DNA of 64,000 bases from Ectocarpus siliculosus (taxonomy: Eukaryota; Sar; Phaeophyceae; Ectocarpales; Ectocarpaceae): positions 1 to 64,000 of the forward strand of contig FN648585.1 of assembly GCA_000310025.1 (NCBI GenBank), written 5' to 3'. The notes beneath the pieces are model-generated. The model saw only the letters and a list, made by a program, of their open reading frames with translations. It was not told where the DNA came from and searched no databases. The translations under genes and the position numbers were made by a program. Of the stretch, positions 4,300 to 35,970 are shown in pieces. The stretch's first letter is position 1; each line of letters opens with the position of its first letter.

Positions 4300-5214
4300 A
4301 CCACCCCTATCTGTTTGTTTTTTTGTGCACGCTTGACGAGCTCCCGCCATGTATCAGCCGGCAAAACGTTGACACGGTGACGCTAGGGTTGTCCAGATCC
4401 CTCTATGAGCTTGCTACGTTGAGTGTGCGCTGCGCAGTGGTTGGTGTTTAGGCCGGAAGGGGCGGTCGGCTACTAATCTCGCCGCTCTTGGGAAACATTT
4501 TCGCGACCTGCCCCATTTCAAAATGTTTGAGAATATTTTGGCAAAGATATTCTCCCATAAACAGTGAAACAAAATCTTTATCCGCAAATGTTTGAAATAT
4601 AAACATTTTCGCAAAGATTTGGCGACCATAAACATGGGTCTAAGTGTTCTGAGGCTTGTGCGTGTTATCAGAGTACCCAAGACCGGCCGTAACGTACATA
4701 TACATGTTTGTAGGTCCTAGCACTTGCTTGGTCGGCCGGCTGCACGACTCTCCGTCTCTCTCTGACTCTCGCTGTGTGTGTGTCTCTTTCTCTCTCTCTC
4801 TCTCTTCCTCTCTCTCTTTCTCTGTCAATCGCTCTGTCTCTCTCTGCCCATGTGTCCCTCCCTCTCTCTCCCTCTCTTTCCCTCTGTCTCTCGCTCTGTC
4901 TCTCTCTAAACCGGCCAGTTTCGTAAGCGACGAGCACGCCACATCACTGCATGCCGCCGACACAGCAGCAGTTGTAAAATAAGTATATGCTCCACTGATC
5001 GCTGCTGAAGAATGCATACATTGTCATGCATACAGCAGCGCGTACATCGTTGTTCTTGACATAAAAGGCCATATTGACATATTTCTCGTCAAGCATGAGA
5101 TAGCGCGGCAGTGCGGTATGTAAGTTCCTTCCATTGTATTGATTTCGCTACCAATCTAGCAGAGTTCGGATCGACCCTTGTTGTTTTTCGCCTCTGTAGG
5201 GTGATTGTTGAAAG
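4300..5214. other. non-coding stretch with pyrimidine-rich tract
   Basis: No gene is supported. Positions 4753-4910 are an imperfect CT-rich microsatellite, which creates artificial Arg/Glu-rich or Ser/Leu-rich open frames on the two strands. Confidence 0.7.
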
Positions 5215-8660: not shown

Positions 8661-8690
8661 TAAGGAAGAAAATCACAAAATCACTGGTTA

Positions 8691-8775: not shown

Positions 8776-8787
8776 GGAGATTTGCAG

Positions 8788-8930: not shown

Positions 8931-8975
8931 CAGAATGTCCAGCTGTGTGCTGAGGTCGGTCAGCATCTCGAGAGA

Positions 8976-9160
8976 AGCGTAGCCAGCAAGCAAGGCTTGG
9001 CGCGGGACACGAGAGAAGCAAGCAAGGCTTGGGGCGGGCGGCGAAAAAAAGAAGACGACTCTATATAAAAAGATCTGTAAAAAGAAGGGTTGGCGCGGGC
9101 GGCGAAAAAAATGAAGACGACTCTTATACAAAAAGATCTATAAAAAGAGGACCCTCAACG
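8976..9160 (+). repeat. minisatellite: 28-bp and about 63-bp tandem units
   Basis: AAGCAAGGCTTGG recurs at about 28-bp spacing, followed by two about 63-bp units, each GGCGAAAAAAA-GAAGACGACTC-TATA-AAAAGATCT. The open frames across it are low-complexity Lys/Arg readings. Confidence 0.8.
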
Positions 9161-9231
9161 ACAAGTCAACCAATCTGGTCGTTCCGATGTGACGATGTAA
9201 CGCAGATCTTCTTGTCGACGGAGAAACTGGT

Positions 9232-9316
9232 TATCGCCCCACAGCAAGCGATAGATGCTCAAACGACTGTGAGAGGTCTTGAAATCGTCTCAGCTACCCA
9301 GAACTGCTGGTAGTTC
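9232..9316 (+). repeat. dispersed repeat, copy 2 of 3
   Basis: Near-identical to 8691-8775, 540 bp upstream, in direct orientation; the pair brackets the minisatellite. It lies about 290 bp upstream of the Harbinger transposase reading frame. Confidence 0.8.
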
Positions 9317-9602
9317 TCGGAGGTTCGCAGTGTGGGCTGAGATCGGCCTTTTCGACCCGGTCGGGCAAGGGGTCCGCTATGCTACTGAAAACTCCACAGA
9401 CGGAAAAAAAAGACTTTTGATCGACTGAGACCCAAGCTAGAGCTTGGGAACTGCTGCTGTTGCTGCTCTTCTGTTGGGAAATTGGAGGGTTCGTGTTTTT
9501 AACGGCAGCGAAAGGTCACGAAGACTCCGCGCCCCTCGGTTGCAGAGTCATAATATTTTATGTGATATCTACTGTTAACCGAGTCATGCAAATAGGTTTC
9601 AT

Positions 9603-10561
9603 GTGCTGATACTCGCAATGCAACCTTCGTCGCATCTTCGTCATCACCCCACGTGCCACCGCCTGCAGAAGTTGTACGAGTTCCTGGATGCTGAGGGTCA
9701 GGCGGAGAATATGGTGTTCTACGACCAGCGAGAGGGAGGCGGGATAACAGCAGACGGGACAAGGGTTGAGCAGAGGCGAAAGATATTTCGGGGAGTGACC
9801 GGACTTTTTTTCACGTTGATGGTCCTGCGCACCGCAACGTCGATTGTGGTGGCATCGGCCCTGTTTATGCCCACGAGACTACCGGGGGGAGGGCGTTCAC
9901 GACGTGGTTAAACTTCCTTTGGCAGTGTCTTCCGCCTATGGTTCGGCTTCCTACTTTAGCAGAGGTGGACGAGTCCGTCCCGCAGAACTTTGTCGATCAT
10001 GGGTATGCAAAATGTGTTCTAGTTCTGGACGCCACTGAGATAGAAATGTGCAGGTCTTGGCAAACTGGCTGGAACTGGATCACATATTCCACGTACAAGG
10101 GCAGACAGACGGCTAAATTACTTGTCGCGGTCACCCTTGGGGGTGCGATTTGTTACATTGGGCCCGCGTATCCCGGTAGGATGACCGATGTTGAGGTTGT
10201 AAAGGCGTCTGGTCTTGTCGACGCCATGACGGATAATGGCCTTGATCACGAAGACCTCATGGTCATGGCGGACAAGGAGTTCAATTCGGTGTCGCCGTTG
10301 TTGATCGAGGAAGGTTTCCTGTACGTGGCGCCTCCTTACAAGCGGCAGAAGGAGAAGCAGTTCACTGAAGCCGACATGGAATCCAACTGGGAGGTAGCGA
10401 ATTTGCGCATTCATGTAGAGCGGGCAATCGGGGCCATGAAGAGGTGGAGTATCGTCGACAAGACATTCAACCATACGCAACTCGATCACTTGGAGATGTG
10501 CTTCCATGTGGTTTCAGCTCTAGTAAACATTATTCAGCAGCCGTTCAAGAGCGACAAGTAA
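9603..10561 (+). pseudogene. PIF/Harbinger (HARBI1-like) DDE transposase, frameshifted
   Basis: A DNA-cutting transposase of the DDE_Tnp_4 family. The frame from 9603 carries the N-terminal part, including ENMVFYDQREGGG and the LFFTLMVLRTATS helix that normally precedes a helix-turn-helix. Near 9865-9885 the homology jumps to the frame that contains TTWLNFLWQCLPP and then the open frame from ATG 9938. That frame holds the three catalytic residues: Asp in VLDATEIEM (10028), Asp in MADKEF (10271) and Glu in IHVERAIG (10418). The catalytic domain looks intact to TAA 10559-10561. The frameshift separates it from the DNA-binding region, so the copy is probably inactive unless the shift is a sequencing error. 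Autonomous Harbingers usually also encode a Myb-like protein, which I do not find. A possible non-autonomous partner is the MITE at 38123. Confidence 0.85.
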
Positions 10562-11745
10562 ATTTGTTAGTGACGCGTTTGCGCATACAACGAAATTTGC
10601 TACACTGATGCCGTGTAATTTCTGTTAAAAATAAAGTCTTTCCACTGTGCGCAAAACAAAAAAACGCAAGACGAAAGATGATCCGCATTTGGCCGTGTAA
10701 TCTCGCCGCGCACATACATGCAGCCGTGGAGTTCGAAGGGGTCAGGAAAGATGTGCACATGTGCACCTACATTTGAAAATTGAAGCGATAGTCACACCAC
10801 GCCCTGTCCTCCGAGATGTCGGCGATGCACAAATCCCTCCCCCTCACTGTCCTGATGACCGTGCGATCTACCCGTACTGTCTCCACCTGCAGCGCTATAT
10901 GAGCGCAGCCCACAACTCGAGCTCTTTCGTTTCGTGCTCATCTTCTTCCTCGCTGCCAACCAACAGCAGGACAGCTGCGCACAAGAGGCAAAGCAGCTCA
11001 TGCATCAGTTCTCCGGTGCTCATGGCGCCGCAGCGGCGTTTAAGGTTGACATCCCGGATCGGCCTCCTGGTTCTATCCATGGCTTGTGTAAGGGGGCATG
11101 GGGCGGGCACTGGCTGCGCGTCTCGTAGCCCGCTGCCGTCTCGTGCCACAACGGCGCAGCAAGCGGCCCAAACTGACGTGGACCAACCAGCGCGCGTGGT
11201 CGTTCGGGCGGAAAATTTTGCTTGCAAATTTCTCTATGGCGAAATCTCAAGACATATTTAGGCAGAAGTCGCGTCGGAGGAACTTTAGATACCCCGAACT
11301 GGTCGTTACGAGCCAAATTTTGTTCTGCGCAAACACGTCAGTCTTCTCTTATTATTAACCCAACGTCGAAATCGTTCTTTTTTAAACGTAACGGTTAAAA
11401 GAAAACCCGACTTTTTTTTGCTTGTTCTTTTCGTGATGTCATCGCAAAAAGTACGTTTCCTTCCCTGAATACACGCTTTGCTCGGCACACAACAGGTTGA
11501 CATGGTATTGCTCCCCATAGAGCAGCGATAAAAGCGCAATAAGCAGCACCCGGCACAGAGGACAACACACTTAGAAAGATCCCGTCCATCCGGCCTGCTG
11601 TTTTCAGTTTTCAGCAACAACAGGCGCACGGCAGACTGTCGCCACCTGGGTGTTGCTTGCGATTTCTTCAGTTTGCCAGCTCATTTTTCACGGTTGCGAC
11701 TCCCATCTTTGACCACCACCTACCCAAAGGTAGACGAGCTCAACA
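10562..11745. other. no confident gene; weak minus-strand coding trace
   Basis: On the minus strand, about 11040-10770 has a Met-start frame rich in Leu and Glu (LCLLCAAVLLLVGSEEEDE), followed after a one-base shift by a frame with VRVDRTVIRTVRGRDLCI. The order resembles the N-terminus of Harbinger-type transposases, but there is no catalytic motif. Its orientation is opposite to the transposase next door. Confidence 0.25.
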
Positions 11746-11754
11746 ATCATAGGG

Positions 11755-12118
11755 CGGCAGCCGCGCTGACGGCCAGCATCATATAGATGGCCAATCCGAA
11801 AGAATTAGCGTGTTGGAGGCCCTGTTGCTCTACTGTTGCGTGGCGCCGTGGATTGATGTTGATGTGTCCGACCAAAAACAGATCATCTCGCCGCAATTTT
11901 TCCAACGGCATTTTGGTGAGGTGGCACACGTCTCTCACACACCTTATTGAGCAGCACCCAAGCACCCAATACCCACGAAGCAGCACGGCGCCGGGAGATG
12001 GTATCATATAGACAGCCGAACCGAAGGAATCAGCGCTTTGGAGGTCATGGTGGTGCTGCTGTACTCGTTCTACTGTTTCTGTGTTGGCATGTGTGATCGA
12101 AAAAAATTCCCCAGCACC
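11755..12118 (+). repeat. imperfect direct duplication, period about 230 bp
   Basis: Positions 11755-11895 and 11985-12118 share CATCATATAGA-GGCC, CCGAA-GAAT-AGCG-TTGGAGG and GATGTGT-CGA. No protein is credible in this interval. Confidence 0.55.
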
Positions 12119-12149
12119 AACAGCAGCAGTTGAAGACGAGAGCACCACG

Positions 12150-13020
12150 CAATGTCTAGTTTTGGACCAAGAACGGACTTAACGCCGCTTCTGCCGCTTG
12201 TCCATCTCCACAACAGACCTGGACGTGAGTCTGGCAGGTCTTTCTAGCGTTCTCAGTGATGTTACAGCGCCCGCGGTGCGCTTGTCCGATGTTTCTGTCA
12301 AAAACACGAAAACGTTAAAAGAGCAAGCCTCAAAAAAACCCGACTCCTTCTTTTCACGCTTTCGGGGAAAAACGCCTCCATATATGTTCAAGAAAACACG
12401 GTTTCGTTTTTTTTTTCGTGTTTTATTGGTCGATAACAATAGCCCTTTTTATTTCTTCATTTATCTCCTGTTGGAGTTTAGAGTTGTTTCTTTTTTGCTA
12501 ATAAACGAGTTCTGTTTTCGGGCGTAGTGTTGGGTTGGGTGAACGGCATACCGGCCCATGACTTGCATCGGTTTTTTCCAGGCCTCGGACGGAATACTCT
12601 TTGCTTGGTAACCCTCGTGAACGTTGGACATCCTTAAGTTGGAGTTAGACTATCGCGTCTGGAAATTCCTTGGGGACGGAACCAGATGAGTCTCTCGCAG
12701 CGTCAGTTCTATCCTCGTGGAACGTAAGGTAACGCGGCGAACAGCGAGCGTGCGAATAATAACACGGGAAACGGAAAGACGCCTAGGATGACGACCTCAT
12801 CGAACTGTATTGCCTAGGGCTTGGCACAACCCGACCCCGTGTTTCGGTGCCATGCATCTTGCTGGCTCCCCGTGCGACACAGTGCGAAAAATGGGGTATT
12901 GGGGTTGAAGAGTGCAACCTGTCGTCGATTTTTGTAACGTTGTATTTTACGCATCGGGGTATTCGCATCACAGCGTAGAATCGGTGTCAAAGGGTTTCAA
13001 GACGAGAGCAAAACATACTT
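12150..13020. other. no supported feature
   Basis: Short discordant open frames and T-rich tracts (12350-12500). I see nothing else. Confidence 0.5.
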
Positions 13021-13024
13021 CGTA

Positions 13025-15490
13025 GCGGATAACAAGCTTCAGTCTCATATTTCAATATCCGTGGGTGGGTGGGTGGGTGGAACTTTTATTCGCAGAGCCC
13101 ACCCCTTGCCCGACCCCGTCTCAATTGCCGATCTCGAGCTACAGTGTAAATCTCGTGGCGCCCGAAGTATGGTTCGGTGGGCAATCGCAAACCATTACCC
13201 CTCCCCGAGTTTCAGCAGCTTCCACCTGCTGTGGCCGACACGACTCGGCGTTGACTGTTCCTTGTCTGTTTCGCCATGGAAACGGCCGGTTGAACAGCGA
13301 AAGAGGGTCCTGCGTGCTGCGCGCCACAACCTTATTTTTTTTTTGCTTCCTGAGTGACCATACTGCTGTTGCTGAATTGCTTCAGACAAGGTTCAAGGCT
13401 ATCGTGTCTGTCGCTTTGGGGTGCACGCGTCGCGTAGTAGGCGATGCGCGTCGCTTACTTTGTCGCCTGTTGTGTCGTTATACATGAAAATCAACAGCAG
13501 CACAACAGTTGAGACAGACAACAACAGGCCTGTTTTCTCTTGCTGCATATGCATGGATGGGTGGTATGCATCGTATTAGTCTAAGGGGCGTATGCATGGG
13601 TGGTATACATCGAATAAGGGTGTTGAGGCTTTTTGAGTCTGCTGCGTAGTCAGTCTCGTAACTTGAGCGATAAGGTAGATGGCAGCACAATCTTATTTAC
13701 AAGAGAAAGTGAGGAATGACAACCAACAGTCTGCTGCTCTGTGCAACGGTGCACATCTATCGCGGACGGACTAGTTCGTCCGTATAGTCATGATTTTTTT
13801 TCTCACTTCGTCACAGAAGGATGAAAGTCCGCACTACTCTAGTCTGTCTATCTAGTTCCAACTCGGCGACTTGTGGTTGTTGTGTTTGTTGTTGCTGAGC
13901 CCACTTCGTATACCGCCGTTCGGTACAGATGTCTGACAGGCTGCGGTGGGCCAAAGGGACGAGAGTGAGTGAGTGTCTTCTCGAGAGTGAGTGCCTTGTC
14001 TTCTCTCCGCTCTCTTCTTTTAGTCTACCTGTCTCTCTCTCGCCGTTCGCTGGTGGGGTCCCAACAATATCGAACTACGTCAACCGCAGTGGTTTCGCAT
14101 CTTGCTGAGTAACTACCCGTGCACCGGGCGGCTGCATGAGAGGCGATGTGCGCTACCTGTTTTATGTCAAGCAATGGACTTGGGGTCCTTCCTAATGCTG
14201 GACATGCAGTGCTATATGTGACATGTTCCAGCGGCCCAGAGCGAGCGACGACCACGGTGGGTTTTCTATGCTTCTTTTGCCTCCTCCCTCAAGCCTGTCG
14301 CGCCTGGCTCACTTGTCTTTGACCTTCTTTTTTCTTTTTTCATGCTTTGTTTGTTGGGGTCCCCCATCCACCCGCCCACCATTATTTTTTGTTGGGAGGG
14401 CAAGTTGGGGAGGGGTGTTTACTTGCCATGTTCATGACTGGGCCCCGGACTTTCTACTCGCACCCCGTCCATTCCACTTGTCAACAAACCACCACATCCT
14501 ATTGTACCATGCCCACCGACACGTCCAAGGCTTGGGGAATTTTGAAGCTTTCGCTTCAGTCTCATCGTTCAATATCCGTGGAAGTTTCATTCGCATGCCC
14601 CACCCCTGCCCGACCCGGTTTAAAATGCTATCTCGAGCAACAGCGCAAATCTCGTGGCGCCTCGAGTATGGTTCGGTGTGGAATCGCAAGTCATGAGCCG
14701 TCCCCGAGTTTGAGCGGCTTCCGCCTCCTGTGGCCGGCAAGAGTCGGCCTTGGCTGTTCCTTGGCTGTTTCGCCATGGAAACGGCCGGTTGAACAGCGAA
14801 AGAGGGTCCTGCGTCCTGCGTGCTGCGCGCCACGTTTTGTTTTTGTTTGCGTTTGTTCTTGAGTGACCATGGTACACATGCGGCTGCTGCTAGCTGCGGT
14901 TTCTGCTGTCATGGTCGGAATGTGCTGCAATGGTCGTACGGTTATCGTAGTCAGGTTTGACAACAGTCTACTCGTTCGTATAGCGGTAGCGGTGCACATC
15001 TATCGCGACGGCAAGCGCATTGAGATAATAGTTCGTCCGTCATGCTTGCTTCTAGTCTACACAGACAGATAGTCGTGTTCTTCTTTGTTGCCACTTCATA
15101 CCAGAAAATAAAGAAAGTCTCCACCAACTTGCAGTATCTCCACAGCAGTTAGTTCGGAAACGAGGACTATTTTTCTTTTGTCGTGTTTGTTGTTGCTGAG
15201 CGCACATCGGATGCCGCCGTTCGTTACACGTGTTCAAGCCTGCGGTGGACCAGAGGGATGAGAGTGAGTGTCTTCTCGACGAGAGTTCATGCCTTGTCTT
15301 CTCGAGTCTCTCTTCCTTTAGTCTACCTCTCTCTCTCTGTTGCATTTTCGCCGTTAGGGTCCCCAATAATATCGAACGTCAACGGCAATCGTTTTGCGTC
15401 TTGCTGAGTAGGAGGCTACCCGTGTACCCGGCTGCTGCATGTGAGGCAATGGGCGCCGCCTCTTTCCGTCAAGCAATGCGCATGGCCCCT
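13025..15490 (-). repeat. large dispersed module, copy M3, about 1.6 units
   Basis: Reverse orientation relative to M1. One unit runs from about 13030 (CTCATATTTCAATATCCGTG) to about 14555, where the same start recurs (CTCATCGTTCAATATCCGTG), giving a period near 1.53 kb; a second, shorter unit follows to about 15490. Both contain CGCCATGGAAACGGCCGGTT and GCAATGGACTTGGGGTCCTT-type landmarks. A (GTGG)n run lies at 13060-13080. No conserved protein. Confidence 0.75.
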
Positions 15491-15491
15491 A

Positions 15492-16011
15492 CGGGTTCGT
15501 CTATGGATAGTTTTTGCAGCTTATAAGTACTTGCGTATAAAACGACTTCTTCATGGATGGGTAATGATGAGAGGTTTCAATTCAACTACTACAGTAACTT
15601 ACTTGTATGGAGGGTGCTCGTTGTTCTTATATGTATGGCATGTACCGGCAGTAGTAGGTCACACAATATATCGCATCATCAACGCATCATCAATATTCAC
15701 AGCTAATAATGTTAGCCCACGACGACGAGGATGTCAAACGATAGGTGGTAGGTTTGTTTCGGAAAGCTACTGTATCGGTGCCAACGCCGCCCGGCCACGA
15801 TTTCTGCTTTGGAGTAATCGAGCTTTGAAAATTAACAATTGTTCAGGGGATGTGATATCTTATGTCATCTACTCTGTGTATAGAACTCTTTGTCGTGCTT
15901 GGTGGGCGAGCGTGTCGCGGTGTGCGCCCTCGACTTTATTAACGGCTTAAAAACTGGAAAGCTTCAGACAGGCAACGCGACGATACTCGTCGAGTTGCTA
16001 TCACAATGTTG
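15492..16011 (+). repeat. 520-bp dispersed repeat, copy 1, ending in hairpin
   Basis: Matches 31775-32276 in direct orientation at high identity from GGTTCGTCTATGGATAGTTT to GTCGAGTTGCTATCACAA. The 3' end holds the palindrome CGACGATACTCGTCG (15978-15992) about 12 bp before similarity ends. No coding capacity. The layout, terminal hairpin near the end without long inverted ends, is reminiscent of a non-autonomous Helitron, but a CTRR end is not clear. Confidence 0.75.
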
Positions 16012-16299
16012 TATCCCCAGGCAGGCCCAGGTGCAAAATTAGCCTAAATCCATAAAAACAAAAGGACACCCCCCCCCCCCTCCGCCCCCCTCCCTCCTCT
16101 TGTACCGCATTCCTCCACCAAGGTCTCCTCCGGGCAAGAGAGAAACACGCCCCAGCTTGGGTCGTGACAATTACAGCAACCCACGACCTCCTCCGCCACA
16201 CACACAGAATCACTTCACGAATGCACACGCAAGCACTTTTCAACGTGGCTACGCAGAGTGTGCAGAATTGTTTTCTTCGCGTACTCTTGGCGGTAGATA

Positions 16300-16925
16300 A
16301 TCCAGGCACACCTCTTGGTGGTCCGATCGCCTCTCGTGATTTACGAACGCCATTAATTTGTCCCTCTTGAGTTTGCTGATGTCCTCGCCAGCATCGAAGT
16401 GCACTTTGCGTGCGGCCCACATTCCCCTGGTAGAGATGCGGGTTGAACTGGTTCATTCGATCTATGGGTGGAACCCCACTCGCGTGGACTTGTTTGACGT
16501 CGTCCCATCCTACATTCCCTTTCGGATCCCGAACACTCCGGACGACCGTGGTTCCTACCGACATACTCATGCCGTATAGCTCGCACTGTTTGGCCGATCG
16601 AGAACCCTTGCCATGCTGCATTATCCAGCGGCATGCCATTCCCGTACACGTGGTAGGATTGAACGTGGCTAGCTGTTCTTCAAACATCTGGAGCAGTGTA
16701 CCTAAAAACAGCGCCATGGCGGCGTGGGAGCACCCCCCCATAATGCCTGCAAGACATTCGCAGAGAGCCGCGATGACCTCCAGGGCTACCAGGGTTTGCG
16801 CCGACCGCGGGTCATTGCCCACGACCTCCTCCTCTTCCTCCCCCTCCTTCTCCTCTTGCTCCGTCGGGGGTGCGTTCTCATCCACTTCGTAGTTTGATGC
16901 GGACGCGGTACTCCTTGTCGGCCGA
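16300..16925 (-). pseudogene. late exon(s) of the XPG/SAP-type gene, unrecognised domain
   Basis: An acceptor (AACACACAG) near 16940 opens a minus-strand frame with an acidic Glu-rich stretch (residues about 8-20 after the Met at 16885), then a hydrophobic helical segment (ALFLGTLLQMFEEQLATF), then DDVKQVHASGVPP and MNQFNPHLYQ. At about 16420 the coding signal continues in the next frame (WAARKVHFDAGEDISKLK...), which implies a one-base shift in a G run, and that frame closes near 16250. No known domain is recognised. The exon follows the nuclease exons in the same orientation and I infer it is the C-terminal part of the same gene or element. Confidence 0.4.
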
Positions 16926-17480
16926 GAAGGAGGCGCCCGCGCTGTGTGTTATCAGTTGGAGATTATTTCATCGGGATGGGAAGGTTGTTAGGCGCAGTCT
17001 TTCATTTTCGAGGTTTTAATCTCCACTACAACGTTGCTGACGGAGCAGGCAGCGATCGAAAACAAAGTCAACAAAATGCAGCGTACCGCACCGTCATGAC
17101 GTGCGGGGAAACAAGGCAAGAACACGTGGGGGACCGGGTCTGTCCCTCGAGTATCGTAGAGGGTAACTTGTTTTGTGTACGATGCTGGCATCAGCGTTAT
17201 TCCGACGGGAACATCTACACGGTTGTAAACATGGTCAAGGCAGAAAAGCACGAATGCAACGGAAAGTACGTGTGCGCATGATGCACACAGGCCCGGGTGG
17301 CAATATGCTGCGCTGTCACCGTCGAATCGTACGTCGGGACTAGATCAAGCATACTTTTTTATGTAATCCGAACATCACAACATAACAACGTTAGAACACA
17401 CACCGGAAACAATATGACGGCAACGCGAAGCAGTATATGCCTATCCTCCTTCCAGGCGGGGTGCATATTGTGCGCCTCAC

Positions 17481-17887
17481 CTAGTCCCAATCCACATAAT
17501 GCTCCCCGCTGCCTGAACGGTCCAAAACCTGCTGAGGTTCCCCATGTCCAACACCCGCTGCAGCGATCTATACCAGAGCCGCGAGCCCTTGCCGGCGAGT
17601 TTGTTCACTTCTCGCATGAACCGTAAGATGACGGCTTTCGATATCTCGGGGAGATACCGCCGCATAGCGGACCACTCCTTTATGCGCAGCCCTGTCGCAG
17701 GAAGATCCGGCATTAGCCTGGCCTCCTTTTCCTCAAAAGAGCTGAGGTCCGGAAAGGGATGGCGAAACGCCAAGTTGGTGTCCAACACACCGCAGCTCCT
17801 AATCAGCCTGACGACATCCCCAGCCATCTGAGCAAGGAGTGCTTTGTTCAACCCACTGGTCCCGGTGTTGTCGAGACACCTAAAAAC
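17481..17887 (-). CDS. internal exon downstream of the XPG/SAP exons, unrecognised
   Basis: A textbook acceptor with a polypyrimidine tract (TTTCTCCCCTCAG) precedes 17887 and a GTGAGG donor follows 17481. The open frame between encodes a helical, basic protein segment (SGLNKALLAQMAGDVVRLIR..., FMREVNKLAGKGSRLWYRSL). There are no stops in 407 bp. It sits between the SAP-like exon and the acidic exon on the same strand, so I infer one multi-exon gene. Family not recognised. Confidence 0.5.
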
Positions 17888-18742
17888 CTGAGGGGAGAAA
17901 TGCACACGACAAGAGGAGCATCCCAAGCGTGTGGGGCGCATATACGTTCATGCTTAGTTGATGACGCACACCGAAACCCACCCGCTTATCTTAGGCGAAG
18001 AACAATGTACATCTTCGATTACAATTTGCTATCTCCACGTGCAGTTGCCGCGTGCATCTCGTACCCCACCGCTGCCTCGAACAGAGCGCGAAGAGACCAA
18101 AACTTCTAGGTTCGTTGTTACCCTACGCACAATAATCCCGTGTTCGAACGACTGCTCTAACGAAGAGGTTGACGCACATCAATATCTGACTTGTGGTCAA
18201 CGTGACCATTACCGAAAACAGACTGCGAGGGGGGCTGAATTGCACATATCCGGCGCGAATGGTGTACTTAATCTGCTCTGAGGGTGGCCCACCGTACGCG
18301 AACAATTTAACTACAGTCCAAAATCGCACAACTTGTGATCACTTGTGGGGTGCACCATTTTGGGGCCATTCCAAATACAGTACTTCTTCAACCAATCGGG
18401 ATATCCGCCCCGAACCTTATTAACAGCAGCCGCAGTGCGCTGTGTGCAAAGCGGAACGTGGTGTGTGGTCTCTTTTGTAAGCGTGTGTGCGTACATCGCT
18501 CAACCTGCTGCTGGATGGTCGACAGGCGCACCCGGAAGCCAGTAACGGCAGTCTGAAATATGACGAAGCGCCAAGTTTACAACACAGGATGCACTCTTTA
18601 CCCAAAATATAGTTTGAAGTAGTAATAGTCTATGGACCAAGTATTCTGTCACAGCCATAACTGTAACTACCCTCCCCGACTAGTAACCTACTGACAGTAG
18701 CTCTCTATAAAAAATGTCGCTAAAAACCCATCTTTTACTCAC

Positions 18743-19059
18743 GCTTAGAAACTCGCGAAGCTTAGGCACGGTCCACTTGGTGTAATCTTCAGTCTCCCCC
18801 GGGAGTCTGCTGAAGCCGTGCTCGCGGTAGTTGTTTGTGTCTTGAGGACCTCGAGCGCGAGACGCCCTGCTGCTAGCATTCGAGGGGCGACTGCTAGCCG
18901 TCTCGGGTGTTGCCTTTTTCTTCTGCCTGCCAGCATCCGCGCCTGCCGCCTGCCCCTTCCCTTGTGCTGTACCCAGCGGTGGGTCCCATTCGCGCCCGGT
19001 CAGCAGACATATATCTCCCCGGGCCACACGGGACGCCAGCGGGGATAGCTCCAACGTCC
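18743..19059 (-). CDS. exon with SAP-like segment, downstream of the XPG-type nuclease
   Basis: The acceptor GTACAG at 19061-19060 and the donor GTGAGTA after 18743 bound an open frame. It begins LELSPLASRVARGDICLLTG, which fits the end of an XPG/FEN1 domain, passes through a Lys/Ala/Ser linker, and ends DYTKWTVPKLREFLS, the first helix and turn of a SAP DNA-binding motif. The donor falls inside the SAP motif; a possible continuation exon starts after TTTCAG at about 18560. SAP motifs bind DNA and are common in nuclear nucleases and in some transposon proteins. The upstream exon ends at the donor at 19451. Confidence 0.55.
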
Positions 19060-19450
19060 CTGTACGTGCAGGATGCGAGCATAAGAGTGAAGGGAATTCA
19101 GGCGATAGTATATGCAACGCCGTCACTAAATGTATCTGCTTGTACATCAGTACAGCAGGGTTACGCGGTATGCAGTACAGCGGGAGCCGTGTAATCACGG
19201 GACGAGCAAAGCCCGACCGAGGTCATTTGTGGGTTTACATATAAATCTACTTTGTAGAAAGCATGTTTGAAGGTACATCAGACCTCCTGGCTGCACGCAG
19301 ACTCCAGTGTAAAGGACACCTTTTAGTTGTGTGTAAGGTCTCACTGCTGGCGCCCGACTACAAGTAGGGTGACGTCGGGAAACATCAACCCAAAATCTGG
19401 TCTTAGGTACGAGGAGCATTCTTACGCACACAAACACGCGGAACACTGAC

Positions 19451-20555
19451 CTGTATGGCGGGTGATTTCCTCCCTGGTCGACGCGCCGGACAAATGTTGG
19501 AGTTCGCCGCTCAGCGGGTTCCACACCACGGGCTGTGTAAACATGGTGTGGCAGGCGCGCAGTCGGATCTCAAACTTACGCCGCGCAGCAGGCGTGTCCT
19601 CCTCCCTGGACTCCACCAGCAGCCTTGAGGCCAGGTCTCCCACAACCGCATCGAATGGTAGCAAAGATGCCGCCCAGACACGCTTTCTGTGTCAACGAAA
19701 GCTAGCCTTGCAGCAGTAACTGGTCCGACATTTTTGAATTTCGCGAAGTCTTTGCCTACGATAATGGCGAACAAGAGAAGGCGGCGGCGGGCGGTCGGTT
19801 CCGGTAGAGGCGTGTAGTCGAAGCCCTCGTCAACTGGCTGGTGTATCCCGTGCAGCTGGCGCAGCCGACCACGAACATCCCCGCTCCGGAGGAAGGACCA
19901 TGTGGTGGGTTGGAAGAGCAGCCTCTGCCGGACGCATCGTCCGACAAGCTCTCCTCTCGCGTTCTTTACCACTTCCACCAAAAGATCCAGTACCCCAAGA
20001 ACTGTGAAGTCGGAGTCATTGGCATACACGTACACGTTCGCCCCTGTTGCGAGATGGATGTCCTGGAAAACTGCAAGCTGTGGATCCGCTTCGCCTGGGG
20101 CGATGTTTACCTCCCCCCTGATACGGGCTCTCAAGCGCGTTGCGATCTCAGCGGTAACTCGACCGTCGAAAGCACAAGCAGCGCTGGCCAACTTGTTGAT
20201 CTCCACGGGACAGCCACCGGCGTCGTGTAGAGCACGCGCCTGTTGTGCACTCTTCTGCCTCCTCTCTCGTCGGTGTTGAGATGTCCCACTCTTGGCCGGA
20301 GGCGGCCGACCGTCGAACACTACCGTCACTAGGAAATTGCGGTCTTCAAAGAGCTTCATCTCTCGGGCACACTCCTACTTGACGGGAGACGTCGCTGTTG
20401 AGAAGTAAATTTTCCGTCGCTACCCCCCTCAAACACATGCGGTGATTTAGGAACCCGCCGTCGACGATGACATGATGTTTTCCTTGTCCGTTTTCAAGAT
20501 CAATCCTGACCGAAGCCACGCTTTTAGACAAGCGGGAGAGCGAATTGACTCCCAT
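19451..20555 (-). pseudogene. XPG/FEN1-family structure-specific nuclease, frameshifted
   Basis: The start ATG at 20555 begins MGVNSLSRL, matching the MGIxGL N-terminus of FEN1/XPG nucleases, followed by the metal-binding VDGG. After a one-base shift near 20375 the frame continues with VFDGRPPPAK and an Arg-rich helix. It then has the XPG-I block with GEADPQLA and the acidic ANDSDFTVLG, and the helix-hairpin-helix GKDFAKFKNVGPVTAARL. A second shift near 19700 leads to the tail (RACHTMFTQPVVWNP), which ends at donor GTCAGT at 19451. The family cuts flap or bubble DNA in the nucleus using two clustered acidic metal sites; the key acidic residues seem retained. Two frameshifts make this copy probably dead. 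FEN1 proper lacks a SAP-type tail, so this is a divergent family member, possibly carried by an Academ-type transposon. Confidence 0.75.
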
Positions 20556-20599
20556 CCCAACCGAAGGGAAGAGGGCGTGGGAATGACGGAGACGAGTGG

Positions 20600-21462
20600 G
20601 AGAGAGGTCCCCAAAAAGGACCAAGTTCGAGCACGCGACTGGACCGGTCTCTGTGTTGCAAAAGGCAACATTTTTTTAAATGGCGGCCTGTTCGGGGCCG
20701 CTTTTGGAGACCGGAGTAGGATGTAGGATGGTCGCTTCGCCCCGTGTGGCGAGTGGAGGATGGTGCAGCAGCAGAGGATTGGCCAGCTGTCACATCGTGC
20801 TTGTCAGGCTCCCCCGAGACTATCGAGGGTGTGGATGCCACGCACCTCATGTCGTACGTCATGTACTGTGCCTGGCGGCAACGGCGCGGCAGCACCCCCT
20901 ATTTTAAAGCAGCTGCTCTACTGCTGCAATATATTCGAAGCATTGATCATGTCTTCTACACGCATGAGTCGAAAGTCGTGTGTTAGGAGAGACAGGTCAA
21001 CAACTTCGGTGGCTCGCAACTTGGATGTAAGCCACCTCGTCACAAACGTAGACAGAGACAAGTGCCTGACGCTGAATCGCCACTGGTGAGAGTGTGCGCA
21101 GTTCTTCTTACTACACTCTGGTTTACCATATGCAGATAGATGCATACTTGTGTTGCGCGTCGTTTGTTGCCTGCTGTCATACAAACGACTGCTGTCATAC
21201 CAACGAGGGCAGATATGATACTTAAAACAGAACAACACAATCAACGACGCCGAGGGTCGTTTGGCACCTGACATTAGAACGATCTACACTCGTTGTATCG
21301 GGTACCCACGTACCCACACAAGAAATGAAACCACGACAACCCACCACTACCAATACCACAAGGAAAGCTGACCTGCCCTGTCCTGTTTTTTCATAGACGA
21401 GAGGGTACACAAACGGCATACATAGATCGTCCCCCGACTCCTAAAAGCCCCCCCCCCCCCCC
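20600..21462. other. no supported gene
   Basis: Upstream region of the nuclease gene. Overlapping short open frames disagree between strands and no motif is recognised. Confidence 0.5.
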
Positions 21463-21784: not shown

Positions 21785-22228
21785 CCCCCCCCCCCCCCCC
21801 CCCCCCCTCTGCCAATGGCGACCTGTTCTTCTTTCTTTCTCGTAGTCTACTGCATCCCTTACGACTGCGAAAAGTGATAACGTCCAACCCCCCCCACCCT
21901 TCATGCGACTCGCCAAATACCTCACGGCGCTTCGCGCTTGGTGATGTGAGAGCCTGGTCCGGTGAGAACCCGGCGTGCTCCGTCCCGGCTTTGTAGGGAT
22001 GCGAGGTCAATGGTCAAACGACTACGGCATGCACGACTATGAGTACACCCCCTCCCCCCCCTCCTAAAAAAAAGGACAACACACACCCGCCCCACAAAAA
22101 CACCAAAATAACTGCACTTTCCTTCGCAAAACGAGGACCCCCTTGAGGCGTCCCCCTGGAGGCGGGTCGTTTGGCGATCGACTAAAAACCAAAAGTGTTT
22201 GACCGGCATGCTCAGAAATATCGTCAAC

Positions 22229-23857
22229 CTAGTTAGATCGGAAGGGAGGATAGCCATTGCCCTGATTGACGTCGTTGTTCTGTTGCCCGAAAAGCTGCAT
22301 ATAGCCACTCTGGTTGGTGGCACCTTGGGAGGGTGCACCCATCCGCTGTGTGGGTGCACCCATCCCCATCGACGACGCCCCTGCCCCCTGGGTCGGCATC
22401 ATCCCCATCGACGACGCCCCCGCCCCCTGGGTCGGCATCATCCTCATCGCGGACGCACCCGCCCCCTGGTTCTGCATCATCCCCATCGAGGACGCACCAG
22501 CCCCCCGGGCCTGCATCATGTTGTGTGGCACGGACACGAACCCCCCCATTGACTGGATGCCTTGAGCCATGGCGTTGTTGTGGGCCTGGTCGGAAACACG
22601 TGCTTGATTGGCGTTGCCCTGCGACAAAGCGGTGCCCATTGAAGCGGCCATCTTCATTAACGTGTTACCATCCACCGTCGCCAGAGCCCCATGCGTCGTC
22701 GCCTCTTCACGTTCGTCACTGGACACGCACCATCACGACAACGCAGGACACGCGTCAGAAAGAAGCGGGTGTTGAGTCTATCCGTGGGTACTTTGCAACG
22801 TACCACCAGCTCTCGAAATGGAACAAACGAAGAGAGACAGTCCGACATTTTACAACCTAACCTTCCTCGTCTTGATTTACGATTTGCGGTGGCTGCGTGG
22901 ATGCTATAAAGCGTCAGCGACGGAGAAAAGGACGACGGGCCACAACCAAATTACACCAAGTGTACTCACCTCCTCCGCGTAGCCTCGTGCTCACGCGGAC
23001 TGCGCCTTTTCGGCGATGGAGTCTTGGATGGGGGGCCTCTCTTGTTGCCCGAAATGCTCCTGTGGGTTTTTGGCAGATGCGTAGCGGAGTATCGAATGGA
23101 CGGGGGGCGGAGAGTTAAATAGAGCGGGGGTGGAGCGTTGGAAGGAGGGCTTAGAGGGGTATGGGGCGGCTGTCGGAGCACTTGTTTCCCTAACCAACGA
23201 CGCCCAAGACCCAACGAAGCCGGAACACTCACTCGCGACTGGGAGAGTAAAAAACCAAAGGCGGCGCATGCAACGGTGCCCTCGTCGACCTCTTTCCCAG
23301 AACACTCACGTAGACAACAACAACAAAAAAACCTAGGCCGCACACCCACATACACCCGGAAGGTCTAGAACAACGAATTGGGTACTTCGGTGCGGAGGCA
23401 TTACCCACCCTTGTGTGGGGTGCCCCGAAAACACTCCAGGAACAAACACCATCAACACTCACTCGTCGAGCGGGCGGCCGTTCTCCTTCACGACCCCGGT
23501 GACGTACTCGCATGCGTTCGTCAAGCGGCTTTAGATGCTGGTGAACAGCGACCCAACACGCGTCTCTAGGTCGGCTTTCGCACTGCTCTCCATCTGAGTC
23601 AACCGTGCCTCCAGGTCCGTCTTCAGCTGCAGTACTTGACTTGCGACCTCGGTCTTGACCAGGGTCATCAATGCCTCGTTGTTGGCCATGACGCCGGCTT
23701 TGGCTGTCGCAGTCAGCTTGGCGTCTGACACCTGCGGAGTGCTTCTACGGACGCGGTTTGGGCAGGCGGCACGAGATGTTGTTGGGGGGCGGACGAGTAA
23801 TGAGGAATATGCCATAGGTGCCACATCAGTCTTCGGTTGGCGAATGACAAAGTCCAA
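22229..23857 (-). pseudogene. three-exon unrecognised gene: coiled coil, then Gln/Met/Gly-rich tail
   Basis: Exon A (23857-23463) encodes a helical, heptad-like region (LMTLVKTEVASQVLQLKTDL...) and ends at donor GTGAGTG, with an in-frame TAA at 23531-23533. Exon B (about 23062-22970) ends at donor GTGAGTAC and carries an in-frame TGA at 22991-22993. Exon C starts after acceptor TGTCCAG at 22718 and runs to TAG 22229-22231; it contains four to five copies of a 13-residue Gln-Gly-Ala-Ser-Met repeat and a Gln/Asn-rich end. Introns would be about 400 and 250 bp. Two stops upstream of donors suggest decay, unless my exon limits are wrong. No family recognised. Confidence 0.45.
22325..22510 (-). 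repeat. 39-bp coding tandem repeat
   Basis: About four to five imperfect copies on the minus strand encode MPTQGAGASSMGM-type units; the period is a multiple of three and the frame is kept. Confidence 0.85.
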
Positions 23858-23989
23858 GGCAGCCGGAGAAAGATGCGGCTTTCCTCCCGAGCACAGCTTC
23901 TAGGGACCGATGTTTCGTATTTACGGGTACGTTCTCCAGATCCATCCTCAGGACTCGCGCGGCTACGTTCTGGAATCATGCGACAGGTC

Positions 23990-26900
23990 ACCAAATCTGC
24001 GGTTCGGGGGACCTTTCATTCTGAAGCTTTAGCTTCAGTCTCATATTTCAATATCCGTGGGTGGGTCGAACTTTTATTCGCACACCCCACCCCTTGCCCG
24101 ACCCGGTCTCAAATGCTGATCTCGAGCTACAGTGCAAATGTCGTGGCGCCCCAAGTATGGTTCGGTAGGGAATCGCAAACCATGACCCCTCCCCGAGTTT
24201 TAGCAGCTTCCACTTCCTGTGGCCGACACGACTTGGCCTTGAATGTTCCTTGTCTGTTTCGCCATGGAAACGGCCGGTTGAACAGCGAAAGAGGGTCCTG
24301 CGTGCTGCGCGCCACAATCTTATTTTTTTGTTCTTCCTGAGTGACCATACTGCTGTTGCTGAATTGCTTCAGACAAGGTTATAGGCTATCGTGTCTGCCG
24401 CTTTGGGGGGCAAGCGTCGCGTAGTAGGCGATGCGCGTCGCTGACTTTGTCGCCCGTCGTGTCGTTATTTATGAAAAGCAACAACAGCACAACAGTTGAG
24501 ACAGACAACAACAGGCCTTTTTTTTCTCTTGCTGCATATGCATGGGTGGTATGCATCGTAATAGTCTAAGCGGCATCTGCATGGGTGGCATACATCGAAT
24601 AAGGGAGTTTGTGCTTTTTGAGTCTGCTGCGTAGTCAGTCGTAACTTGAGCGATAAGGTAGATGGCAGCACAATCTTATTTACAACAGAAAGCGAGGAAT
24701 CGCAACCAACAGTCTGCTGCTCTGTGCAGCGGTGCACATCTATCGCGGACGGACTGTAGCTCGTCCGTGTAGTCATGTTTTTTGTTCTCACTTCGTCACA
24801 GAAGGATGAAAGTCCGCACTACTCTAGTCTAGTGCCAACTCGGCGAATTGTGGTTGTTGTGTTTGTTGTTGCTGAGCCCACTTCGGATACCGCCGTTCGG
24901 TACCGATATCTGACAGCCTGCGGTGGGCCAAAGGGACGAGCGTGAGTGAGTGTCTTCTCGAGAGTGAATGCCTTGTCTTCTCTCCGCTCTCTTCTTTTAG
25001 TCTACCTGTCTCTCTCTCGCCTTTCGCCGGTGGGGTCCCAACAATATCGAACTACGTCAACCGCAGTGGTTTCGCATCTTGCTGAGTAAGAGACTACCCG
25101 TGCACCGGGCGGCTGCATGAGAGGCGATGTGCGCTACCTGTTTTATGTCAAGCAATGGACTTGGGGTCCTTCCTAATGCTGGACATGCAGTGCTATATGT
25201 GACATGTTCCAGCGGCCCAGAGCGAGCGACGACCACGGTGGGTTTTCTATGCTTTTTTTGCCTCCTCCCTCAAGCCTGTCGCGCCTGGCTCACTTGTCTT
25301 TGATCTTCTTTTAATCTTTTTTCATGCTTTCTTTGTTTGTTGGGGTCCCCCATCCACCCGCCCACCATTATTTTTTGTTGGGAGGGGTGTTTACTTGCCA
25401 TGTTCATGACTGGGCCCCGGACTTTCTACTCGCACCCCGTCCATTCCACTTTTCAGCACACCACCACATACATCCTTTTGTACCATGCCCACCGACACGT
25501 GTAAGGCTTGGGGAATTTTGAAGGTTTAGCTTCAGTCTCATCGTTCAATATCCGTGGAAGTTTCATTCGCATGCCCCACCCCTTGCCCGACCCGGTCTAA
25601 TGTGCTGATTTCGAGCTACAGTGCAAATCTCGTGGCGCCTCGAGTTTGGTTCGGTGTGGAATCGCAAACCATGAGCCGTCCCCGAGTTTGAGCGGCTTCC
25701 GCCTCCTGTGGCCGGCAAGAGTCGGCCTTGACTGTTCCTTGCCTGTTTCGCCATGGAAACGGCCGGTTGAACAGCGAAAGAGGGTCCTGCGTGCTGCGCG
25801 CCACATTTTGTTGTTTTTTGCGTTTGTTCTTAAGTGACCATTGTACACATGCGGCTGCTCCTGCGGTTTCTGCTGTTATGGTCGGAATGTGCTGCAATGG
25901 TCGTACGGTTATCGTAGTCAGGTTTGACAACAGTCTGCTCGTTCGTATAGCGGCAGCGGTGCGCATCTATCGCGACGGCAAGCGCATTGAGATAATAGTT
26001 CGTCCGTCGTGCTTCTAGTCTACACAGACAGATAGTGATGCTTCGTCACAGAAGGATGAAAGTCCGCACTACTCTAGTCTAGTGCCAACTCGGCGAATTG
26101 TGGTTGTTGTGTTTGTTGTTGCTGAGCCCCCTTCGGATACCGCCGTTCGGTACAGATGTCTGACAGCCTGCGGTGGGCCAAAGGGACGAGCGTGAGTGAG
26201 TGTCTTCTCGAGAGTGAATGCCTTGTCTTCTCTCCGCTCTCTTCTTTTAGTCTACCTGTTTCTCTCTCGCCTTTCGCCGGTGGGGTCCCAACAATATCGA
26301 ACTACGTCAACCGCAGTGGTTTCGCATCTTGCTGAGTAAGAGACTCCTACCTGTGCACCGGGCTGCTGCGTGAAAGGCGATGTGCGCTACCTGTTTTATG
26401 TCAAGCAATGGACTTGGGGTCCTTCGAGGCATGCATGCAGTGCTATGTGACGTGTTCCAGCGGCCCAGAGCGAGCGACGACCACGGTGGGTTTTCTCTTC
26501 TTATTTGTTTGCCTCCTCCCTCAAGCCTGTCGCGCCCATAGCTCACTTGTCTTTGATCTTTTACTTTATCTTTTTTCATGCTTTGTTTGTTGGGGTCCCC
26601 ATCCACCCGCCCACCATTAATTTTTGTTGGGAGGGGTGTTTACTTGCCATGTTCATGACTGGGCCCCGGACTTTTTACTCGCACCCCGTCCACTTGTCAA
26701 CACACCACCATATCCTATTGTACCATGCCCACCGACATGTCCAAGGCTTGGGGGATTTTGAAGCTTTAGCTTCAGTCTCATCGTTCAATATCCGTGGGAG
26801 CTTTACTCGCATCCCCCACCCCTTGCCCGACCCGGTCTAAAATGCTGATCTCGAGCTACAGCACAAATCTCGTGGCGCCTCGAGTATGGTTCAGTGTGAA

Positions 26901-31774: not shown

Positions 31775-32276
31775 TCGTCCATGGATAGTTTTTGCAGCAC
31801 TTCTTTTTAAATATTTGTGTATAAAACAACTTCTTCACGGATGGGTAATGAGAGGTTTCAATTCAACTACTACAGTAACTTACCTACGGAGTATGGAGGG
31901 TGCTCGTTGTTCTTATGCATGGCTTGTACCGGCAGTAGGTGACATAATATACCGCATCATCAATATTCAAAGCTAATAATGTTAGTCCACGACGACGAGG
32001 ATGTCAAACGATAGGTAGGTTTGTTTCGGAAAGCTATCGGTCGGTGCCAACGCCGCCCGGCCACGATTTCTGCTGTGGAGTAATCGAGCTTTGAAAATTA
32101 AAAATTGTTAAGGGGGGTGGGTGTGATATCTTATGTCATATACTCTGTGTATAGAACTCTTTGTCGTGCTCGGTGGGCGAGCGTGTCGCGGTGTGCGCCC
32201 TCGACTTTGTTAACGGCTGAAAAACTGGACAGCTTCAGACAGGCAACGCGACGATACTCGTCGAGTTGCTATCACA
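31775..32276 (+). repeat. 520-bp dispersed repeat, copy 2, ending in hairpin
   Basis: Direct-orientation match to 15492-16011 with small indels; the terminal palindrome is at 32249-32263. Confidence 0.75.
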
Positions 32277-32299
32277 ATAAATCACCTGTGACACGTACC

Positions 32300-32734
32300 T
32301 CCCGCGCAGGTAACCACAACGCCGGACATGCGCAGCACTTCCAATAACAGCCAATGCTAGCAGCAATAACAGCGGTGTTGCCAAAATCCGCAACGAAAAA
32401 CATAAACAGTTATATGTACCCCCACACATCCACATGCATTACGCAAAATTCCATGAGGGACGAACTCGTAGGTAATGACGGGCGAAGAGGAATAACCAAC
32501 GGAAACATCGCCCCGCATTTTCATATTTTTGGGCGTAACGGATGTGTTTTTGTCCACGAGGGGGCATCCTGGAAGGACACAACGTCCTTGATTCCAGACA
32601 GGAAGGCTGGTTTTGGGTAGAGCTTTAACAAAATGCTGAAGTACGAGATTGTGATACGTCAGTAGACCAACACTCTCGTCTTGCCCTACCGTCAACGTCC
32701 TGCCCGAGGTGTGGAGGTCGAAAGATTTTCCCAC
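32300..32734 (-). other. open frame, possible 3' exon, unrecognised
   Basis: A 125-codon stop-free minus-strand frame (32734-32357) with a plausible protein-like middle (SLPVWNQGRCVLPGCPLVDK) but a hydrophobic Cys-rich end that looks non-coding. It could be a terminal exon of the gene at 32.8-35.5 kb. No domain recognised. Confidence 0.25.
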
Positions 32735-32849
32735 GACATCACCTTGTAGGGATTGCTGTGCTTAAAGAGTATTACCAGAATAACCGTCACCAGACCCCGC
32801 AACCGTTAGTCAACGCACGACACAAACACATTGGTCATCACCTGTGCTG

Positions 32850-35465: not shown

Positions 35466-35469
35466 GTCC

Positions 35470-35970
35470 CTAAAGTGTTACTACTATGTTCATGAAGTGC
35501 CCCTACACCTTGACTTATATAGGCCTTGGTTGTGTTGAAGACTATGGTCGAGTCGGACGTGAAGTTGATCCAGGGGGAGTCCGCGAGAGTGCTGTGTGCT
35601 GTGGTTACTTAGGCTTGTGGCTTGTGGTCTTGTGTTTTTTGTTTGAAAGGGTGGAATGCGGTGAGATTTGCGCTGGTGTGACGTTGTGGGTGCTATTCAA
35701 GCCAGGTGTAGCAATCATCTCGTGGCTGTGGTTGTGTGCACCCCCTTGGCGCAGAAAGAGGCCTGCGGTTCGTAAGGGTGTGTGTGTAACCCGTGTCCGG
35801 CGCTGGAACAACATTGTGAGGCCTGTGCGTCCGAGGGCGGTGGTAGGATGATGAGCCCACCTCAACGAGAACCTGGGGGAAAATGTGTCTTGAAAATAGA
35901 CTGGGAATCGGCCTGACCCAATTGCAGGAAGCCTATGGAGTTTTGAGTATATTCTGCTCTACCTCTCGCT
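35470..35970. other. no supported gene
   Basis: A GT-rich plus-strand open frame (35486-35851) has low-complexity Val/Trp/Cys composition and no motif. Nothing else seen. Confidence 0.45.

What the first reader, a model, noticed from the sequence alone, without database searches (positions are those of the whole stretch)
16300..20555. XPG/FEN1-type nuclease joined to a SAP-like motif and extra exons: possible Academ-like transposon
Ordinary FEN1 is an intact housekeeping protein. Here an XPG-family nuclease (MGVNSL start, GEADPQLA, ANDSDF, GKDFAKFKNVG) is frameshifted twice, is followed by a SAP-like exon and at least two unknown exons, and sits in a transposon-rich window. XPG-like nucleases are known passengers or parts of Academ-superfamily DNA transposons. 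If the unknown exons at 17.5 and 16.4 kb are the transposase, this would be a stramenopile branch.
Basis: partly seen in the sequence, partly recalled or inferred. Interest (0 to 1): 0.75.

Follow-up and report, generated by a model that had tools for sequence, protein, structure and literature searches.

The report
Transposon carrying an EXO1-like repair nuclease
The broken nuclease gene is one part of a large jumping gene that, in several distantly related families, carries its own DNA-repair-type exonuclease next to its transposase, which suggests that this kind of transposon needs such an enzyme to move.

Summary
Window 20555-16249 (-) is one four-exon gene: XPG/EXO1-type nuclease, weak SAP-like motif, SWIM-like zinc-finger module; frameshifted twice in exon 1. 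It belongs to a decayed ~14.7-kb DNA transposon running from 35934 to about 4700, split by nested inserts.

It is not Academ. Its transposase (9660-10561, +) matches DDE_Tnp_4 (E 8e-30); a sister copy adds HTH_Tnp_4 and a weak THAP-like start. The target duplication is AT, shown by occupied/empty-site pairs. These marks point to the PHIS superfamily, nearest ISL2EU, which is reported from animals and carries a YqaJ exonuclease. YqaJ was found on none of the element contigs; the XPG/EXO1-type nuclease stands in its place.

The convergent nuclease-transposase pair occurs in four lineages (nuclease identity down to 33-34%). Seven metal-binding carboxylates are invariant in the four rows aligned, and two lineages show purifying selection between them. 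One copy reads, on predicted splicing, as an uninterrupted 834-aa protein.

Most likely the nuclease is a core 5'-processing co-factor of transposition (inferred). Verdict: a new variant of a known kind. "Transposon with XPG" was right; "Academ" and "unknown exons are the transposase" were wrong.

The parts
19451..20555 (-). Exon 1 of the nuclease gene: XPG/EXO1-type nuclease domain from MGVNSL; two frameshifts (near 20377 and 19682)
18743..19059 (-). Exon 2: linker and start of the weak SAP-like motif (WTVPKLREFLS)
17481..17887 (-). Exon 3: rest of the SAP-like motif (VFRCLDNTGTSG...) and a conserved module of unknown fold
16249..16941 (-). Exon 4: SWIM-like CxCx2Gx4CxH zinc-finger module and C-terminus; broken by a frame change near 16434
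9660..10561 (+). Transposase catalytic exon (DDE_Tnp_4), frame-broken; its THAP-like first exon is not found in the window
35015..35287 (-). Remnant of a third, Cys-rich ORF near the nuclease-side terminus
32276..35934 (-). Element piece 1, with the terminal inverted repeat ending GGAAGCCT at 35934; followed by AT
22047..24015 (-). Element piece 2
16002..21462 (-). Element piece 3, with the nuclease gene; 95.6% identical to the C15 copy
12449..13034 (-). Element piece 4
9450..10571 (-). Element piece 5, with the transposase catalytic exon on its opposite strand
4700..5204 (-). Element piece 6; the last ~1.1 kb (THAP-like exon and transposase-side repeat) is not found in 1-4700

Best explanation
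The gene is the accessory nuclease of a large PHIS-superfamily DNA transposon most like ISL2EU. The element has ~200-390-bp terminal inverted repeats, inserts into AT and duplicates it, and is moved by a THAP-like/HTH/DDE transposase. Convergent to the transposase gene lies a second gene for an XPG/EXO1-type nuclease with a SAP-like motif and a SWIM-like zinc finger. I propose that the SAP and SWIM parts tether the enzyme to transposon or repair-intermediate DNA, and that the nuclease trims 5' strands or flaps at the excised ends or donor gap, the step for which animal ISL2EU may carry its YqaJ (lambda-exonuclease-type, by recall 5'-3') exonuclease. Shown here: element structure, AT duplication, conserved gene pair, conserved catalytic residues, selection between two lineages. 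Inferred: activity and the step at which it acts. The window copy is decayed and presumably inactive.
For: Multicopy: the XPG exon is found on 17 contigs. C15 copy bounded by ~390-bp inverted repeats; C13 by 312-bp arms; C261 by 207-bp arms. AT duplication: joined C15 flanks match unoccupied sites with a single AT on C234 and C11; AT lies outside 25 of 26 element ends read (10 of 11 lineage A, 11 of 11 B, 4 of 4 D, the last from two copies that share flanks; lineage C ends not read). Transposase: DDE_Tnp_4 E 8e-30, HTH_Tnp_4 E 1.6e-9 and THAP E 0.0076 in C13. Linkage: 17 of 19 transposase contigs have the SWIM-like exon 0.7-12 kb away, 16 of these 17 convergent; 14 of 17 XPG contigs have the transposase. 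Four lineages keep the pair. Seven carboxylates invariant in 4 of 4 rows, one per lineage, lineage D by C4. Nuclease exon A vs B dN/dS 0.22, transposase 0.11-0.12. Uninterrupted 834-aa spliced frame in C53. Exonuclease 1 is the best PDB match, E 1.1e-16.
Against: No transcript or activity data. Synonymous change between lineages is near saturation, so the ratios are rough; within families the XPG exon gives 0.42-0.93 and other exons 0.11 to 3.4, so recent constraint is weak or not visible. The full 834-aa protein scores XPG_N just under its cut-off (21.5 against 22 bits) and shows no XPG_I, SAP or SWIM match. SAP (best E 0.05) and THAP (best E 0.007) are under the Pfam cut-offs, and the lineage-D first exon does not hit THAP. 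SWIM matches 1 of 4 rows, at E 0.029. In C94 and C261 the nuclease exon has frame changes or stops, so lineage D is represented in the nuclease alignment by C4, which has no transposase match. No labelled ISL2EU or Harbinger transposase was available, so placement inside PHIS rests on domains and AT, not on a tree. C114 and C454 have a transposase without a SWIM-like exon match on the contig, C372 and C4 an XPG exon without the rest. One end (C124 left) lacks AT.
Confidence: 0.62

Rival explanations
1. The nuclease is a passenger captured from the host EXO1/FEN1 pool and kept for a benefit to the element other than transposition, such as protecting its DNA or blocking host silencing or repair.
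For: Giant DNA transposons with accessory genes are reported from Ectocarpus (PMC12477816, section 5). Exonuclease 1 is the nearest solved relative.
Against: Four deep lineages keep it in the same place and orientation, with invariant catalytic residues in the rows aligned; ISL2EU keeps a different exonuclease as its second ORF (PMC4482050).
Confidence: 0.22
2. An Academ-superfamily (AcademX) transposon.
For: AcademX elements encode a nuclease (PMC10045372 passage; that it is XPG-type is recalled).
Against: Two-bp AT duplication instead of 3-4 bp; DDE_Tnp_4/HTH_Tnp_4 transposase.
Confidence: 0.03
3. A host FEN1/EXO1 pseudogene that happens to lie among transposons.
For: Broken frames in the window; the genome also has XPG_I matches on five contigs other than C187 (not examined further).
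Against: 17 contigs, linkage to a transposase, terminal repeats, empty sites.
Confidence: 0.01
4. Part of an integrated virus that carries a FEN1-like nuclease.
For: XPG-type nucleases occur in large DNA viruses (recalled).
Against: No relatives confirmed in viral contigs with the nuclease or SWIM-like alignments; two-bp target duplication with inverted repeats and spliced genes. The element's other ORFs were not all scanned for viral genes.
Confidence: 0.01

Closest known systems
ISL2EU group of the PHIS superfamily (PMC4482050; PMC9179366 passage)
   Same: AT target duplication; DDE + HTH + THAP-type transposase (THAP weak here); a second ORF encoding an exonuclease-type protein; terminal inverted repeats (ISL2EU 6-259 bp)
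   Different: XPG/EXO1-type nuclease instead of YqaJ; 11-15 kb instead of ~4.8 kb; ends AGGC or AGAC instead of usual GG; repeats up to ~390 bp; base outside AT is C at 15 of 25 ends and A at 5, not A|AT|T; ISL2EU reported only from animals
PIF/Harbinger, Pangu, Nuwa, PHISTA (PMC4482050; PMC12730594 passages)
   Same: DDE transposase of the same superfamily, mostly with a second ORF
   Different: Those make TWA, ANT, CWG, TNA or (PHISTA) TA duplications; second protein Myb/SANT for the first groups by Han et al., and a TET/JBP dioxygenase in TET+ PHISTA
AcademX / AcademH (PMC10045372 passage; original paper not held)
   Same: A DNA transposon with an accessory nuclease (AcademX)
   Different: 3-4 or 9-10 bp duplications; other transposase (recalled)
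Kolobok lineages with swapped accessory enzymes (KolobokE, D, P, H; PMC9587614 passages)
   Same: Same theme of a DDE transposase paired with differing nucleases or a helicase
   Different: TTAA duplications, another transposase superfamily; none of the accessory enzymes listed in those passages is XPG/EXO1-type
EXO1 / FEN1 / XPG nucleases
   Same: N-terminal MG, metal ligands, I-region, H2TH-like GNDF..F.N.G
   Different: Fused to SAP-like and SWIM-like modules; lies in a transposon

Membership tests
PHIS superfamily | DDE_Tnp_4-type transposase with helix-turn-helix | tested here: met
   DDE_Tnp_4 E 8e-30 (window); HTH_Tnp_4 E 1.6e-9 (C13 copy)
PHIS superfamily | No or 1-4 bp target duplication (PMC10045372 passage) | tested here: met
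   AT
ISL2EU | AT target duplication | tested here: met
   Empty sites for C15; the C53 flanks against an unoccupied repeat near window 7123, compared by eye
ISL2EU | A|AT|T target preference | tested here: not met
   Base outside AT is C at 15 of 25 AT-bearing ends, A at 5, T at 3, G at 2 (counted)
ISL2EU | THAP domain in the transposase | tested here: inconclusive
   E 0.0076 (B) and 0.018 (A), under cut-off; none in D; C not tested
ISL2EU | Second ORF with YqaJ exonuclease | tested here: not met
   Only 1 YqaJ place found in the genome, on C16, not an element contig; an XPG-type nuclease instead
ISL2EU | Transposase falls in the ISL2EU clade | not testable with these tools
   No labelled reference transposases available
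Academ | 3-4 bp (AcademX) or 9-10 bp (AcademH) duplication | tested here: not met
   2-bp AT; Academ values from PMC10045372
Academ | Academ transposase | tested here: inconclusive
   Transposase hits DDE_Tnp_4/HTH_Tnp_4; no Academ profile was available for a direct test
XPG/RAD2 (EXO1-type) nucleases | XPG_N and XPG_I regions with catalytic carboxylates | tested here: met
   At E up to 1, XPG_N in 4 of 4 rows (best 7.1e-6) and XPG_I in 3 of 4 (best 2e-5); seven carboxylates invariant; Exonuclease 1 E 1.1e-16
SWIM zinc finger | CxCxnCxH | tested here: met
   Invariant C48, C50, C58, H60 in 4 of 4 rows; the Pfam profile only at E 0.029 in 1 of 4
SAP domain | SAP profile match | tested here: inconclusive
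   E 0.05 to 0.076, at most the first 15 positions, under cut-off

The most novel reading that the evidence does not exclude
A PHIS/ISL2EU-type transposon lineage outside animals in which the accessory exonuclease of one fold (YqaJ, lambda-exonuclease type) has been replaced, on a conserved SAP-SWIM DNA-binding chassis, by one of an unrelated fold (XPG/EXO1). Two unrelated 5'-3' nucleases in the same slot would mean that this transposition pathway has an intrinsic need for 5'-end processing.
Probability: 0.45. Interest if true: 0.75.

Novelty: new variant of a known kind. Interest (0 to 1): 0.6.

Why it matters
The role of the second ORF of PHIS transposons was called unknown by Han et al. 2015 (PMC4482050). 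A lineage that keeps a nuclease in that slot, but from another fold, is a natural comparison that points to the biochemical step the second protein serves. It would also extend AT-inserting, exonuclease-bearing PHIS elements beyond the animals from which ISL2EU has been reported (if the host is an alga, which was not tested), and gives genome annotators a nuclease family that might otherwise be named as host FEN1/EXO1 genes.

Tried and rejected
Academ reading: rejected on the 2-bp AT duplication and the transposase profile. Unknown exons as transposase: rejected; they are collinear, spliced parts of the nuclease gene. A first TA reading of the duplication was replaced by AT once unoccupied copies were compared. 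The HIV Rev hits to the nuclease I take for a basic-stretch artefact. Relatives in viral contigs and, for the SWIM-like alignment only, genome contigs: pattern matches, none confirmed at E 1e-3. Transposase against PDB: none at E 1. A first alignment script printed nothing because its anchor was not found. A second terminal-repeat pattern (7 places, 1 + 1 in the control) added only an unrelated-looking C54 place. The right end of the C71 copy was looked for in one stretch and not found; lineage-C ends were not looked for. No structure prediction was run: only window sequence would have been admissible and the window copy is frame-broken. A tree with labelled PHIS transposases could not be made. 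Genome searches state that their counts are lower bounds and that a missing match does not show absence. Literature: in the listings seen of searches (titles and abstract starts; capped lists) I saw no paper on an XPG/EXO1 nuclease in a PHIS or Harbinger-like transposon. This covers open-licence PMC only; Repbase Reports and the AcademH paper were not available, and no supplements were read.
Full report
What was checked. The window exon alone gives XPG_N E 4.7e-4 and XPG_I E 0.013, both under the Pfam cut-offs. A profile of four rows, one per lineage, finds Exonuclease 1 (human by recall) first in the PDB at E 1.1e-16; further Exonuclease 1, FEN1 and XPG chains follow (48 distinct sequences at E up to 1, some of them HIV Rev). 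At E up to 1, XPG_N matches 4 of 4 rows and XPG_I 3 of 4. The spliced full-length protein as a whole only reaches XPG_N at 21.5 bits against a cut-off of 22.

Copies. The nuclease exon occurs on 17 contigs of the unnamed 189-Mb genome, in 22 match rows; by best row, five contigs are at 89-100% protein identity, seven at 51-54% and five at 31-37%. The window copy is about 96% identical in DNA to four sisters over 5.2-5.5 kb. So it is not a single-copy host gene.

Element. The C15 copy lies between inverted repeats of ~390 bp whose outer ends are 14.7 kb apart. The window holds the same element in six pieces from 35934 down to 4700, with nested inserts between them. The transposase-side end, with its first exon, is not found in 1-4700. 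A second family, complete on C13, is 14.3 kb with 312-bp arms. A third lineage on C261 and C94 has arms of about 207 bp, about 11.4 kb apart in C261.

Target duplication. Joining the C15 flanks and searching the genome found unoccupied paralogous sites on C234 (89% identity over query 2-215 of 215) and C11 (query 68-215), each with a single AT at the junction. The right junctions of C131 and C239 against unoccupied repeat copies in the window give AT as well. The C53 insertion lies in the same kind of repeat; its two flanks, compared by eye, fit an unoccupied copy near window 7123. Of 26 ends read, 25 have AT: 10 of 11 in lineage A, 11 of 11 in B, and 4 of 4 in D. The four D ends come from two copies that share flanks and are not independent; lineage-C ends were not read. 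The exception is the left end of C124. The base outside AT is C at 15 of the 25, A at 5, T at 3 and G at 2.

Transposase. Window 9770-10561 matches DDE_Tnp_4 at E 8.2e-30. The C13 copy also matches HTH_Tnp_4 (E 1.6e-9), and its first exon matches THAP weakly (E 0.0076; lineage A 0.018 and none in D).

Second gene. Four exons with GT-AG borders give an uninterrupted 834-aa frame in C53; the splicing is predicted, not observed. The same six borders are found in C15, C376 and the window; my strict patterns found 4 of 6 in C131 and 5 of 6 in C239. The protein starts with MG in all four rows. Seven carboxylates (D32, D82, E156, D158, D181, D183, D270 of the first row) are invariant; that they are the metal ligands of FEN1/EXO1 is by recall and by the Exonuclease 1 alignment. 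The four rows are C53, C15, C187 and C4; C4 stands for lineage D because C94 and C261 have frame changes or stops in this exon, and C4 has no transposase match. A SAP-like stretch spans the exon 2-3 border (best E 0.05; first 15 positions only). The fourth exon has an invariant CxCx2Gx4CxH (rows C53, C15, part of C187, C261); Pfam SWIM reaches E 0.029 in 1 of 4 rows.

Linkage. Relatives of the transposase lie on 19 contigs (29 rows) and of the fourth nuclease exon on 18 (23 rows); the tool calls such counts lower bounds. On 17 of the 19 transposase contigs both are present, 0.7-12 kb apart, and on 16 of these 17 they converge (C12 does not); C114 and C454 lack a match to the exon. The transposase is on 14 of the 17 XPG contigs; C376 ends just after the gene, and C372 and C4 have the nuclease exon alone in the 8 kb read of each. 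The order XPG-(SAP)-exon 3-exon 4 opposite the transposase is seen in C15, C13/C53, C187 and C261/C94; in the 8 kb of C187 read there is no match to the SAP or THAP exon.

Selection. By a Nei-Gojobori count the XPG exon differs between lineages A and B with dN/dS 0.22 (C53 vs C131 and vs C15), the transposase 0.11-0.12, exon 3 0.30-0.31 and the first transposase exon 0.31; for exons 2 and 4 synonymous change is saturated and no ratio could be formed. Synonymous change is high throughout (0.58-0.69 of sites in the exons with a ratio), so these are rough. Within families the XPG exon gives 0.42-0.93 (window against C131 0.83) and other exons from 0.11 to 3.4, so recent constraint is weak or not visible, as expected for decaying copies.

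What it is not. Academ is excluded by the duplication length (AcademX 3-4 bp, AcademH 9-10 bp, PMC10045372 passage), not by a transposase profile. YqaJ, the partner in ISL2EU, was found in the genome only at C16, on no element contig. Viral and prokaryotic collections gave no confirmed relatives.

Comparison. Han et al. (PMC4482050; parts 1-3 of 4 read) define ISL2EU by AT duplications in A|AT|T, a DDE/HTH/THAP transposase and a YqaJ second ORF, only in animals, and state that the functions of the second ORFs are unknown. Here AT and, with a weak THAP, the transposase architecture agree; the A|AT|T context and YqaJ do not. I therefore call it ISL2EU-like within PHIS, not a member of ISL2EU. 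Swapping of accessory nucleases is known in Kolobok (PMC9587614 passages). The Ectocarpus element survey (PMC12477816; abstract and section 5) lists giant KDZ, EnSpm and Sola-1 elements and Harbingers with TNA or ANT duplications; XPG, Academ and FEN1 do not occur in its main text. That this host is Ectocarpus is my guess and was not tested.

Mechanism. Shown: structure, AT duplication, recurrent pairing, conserved active site. Inferred: the enzyme acts as a 5' exonuclease or flap nuclease on transposition or repair intermediates, with SAP and SWIM as DNA-binding parts. From recall, many animal YqaJ proteins of this type also carry a SWIM-like finger followed by CT..C.W; if that can be shown, the nuclease domain alone was exchanged on a shared chassis. 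This is a lead, not a test.

Noticed in passing
window 24016-32275, 13035-16001, 10572-12448, 5205-9449: Nested inserts split the element; several share repeat families with each other and with the flanks of the C131 and C239 copies, so these repeats also serve as insertion targets for these transposons.
   Followed up: partly
L025 (C19:129780-130410): A ~480-bp relative with both terminal repeats and AT on both sides, a likely non-autonomous (MITE-like) member.
   Followed up: partly
C15:4024600-4039500 and C234:43981-44195: The C15 insertion sits in a palindromic spacer between leucine-rich-repeat-like coding stretches (LRR reading by eye); the flanks match many places in the genome (29 match rows).
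   Followed up: partly
L044 (C16:4387488): The only YqaJ match found in the genome lies beside a helicase-like ORF (by eye), perhaps an integrated virus; not on any element contig.
   Followed up: no
L045 (C200:10500-19500): A lineage-D-type nuclease C-terminal half is paired with a more divergent transposase (38% identity); its XPG exon was not found in the stretch read, which begins with a run of N.
   Followed up: partly
L021 1792-2436, 3740-4252, 6211-6936; window 35015-35287: A third Cys-rich ORF and low-complexity or coiled-coil-like ORFs between the nuclease-side end and the nuclease; no Pfam match to the Cys-rich ORF in two copies.
   Followed up: partly
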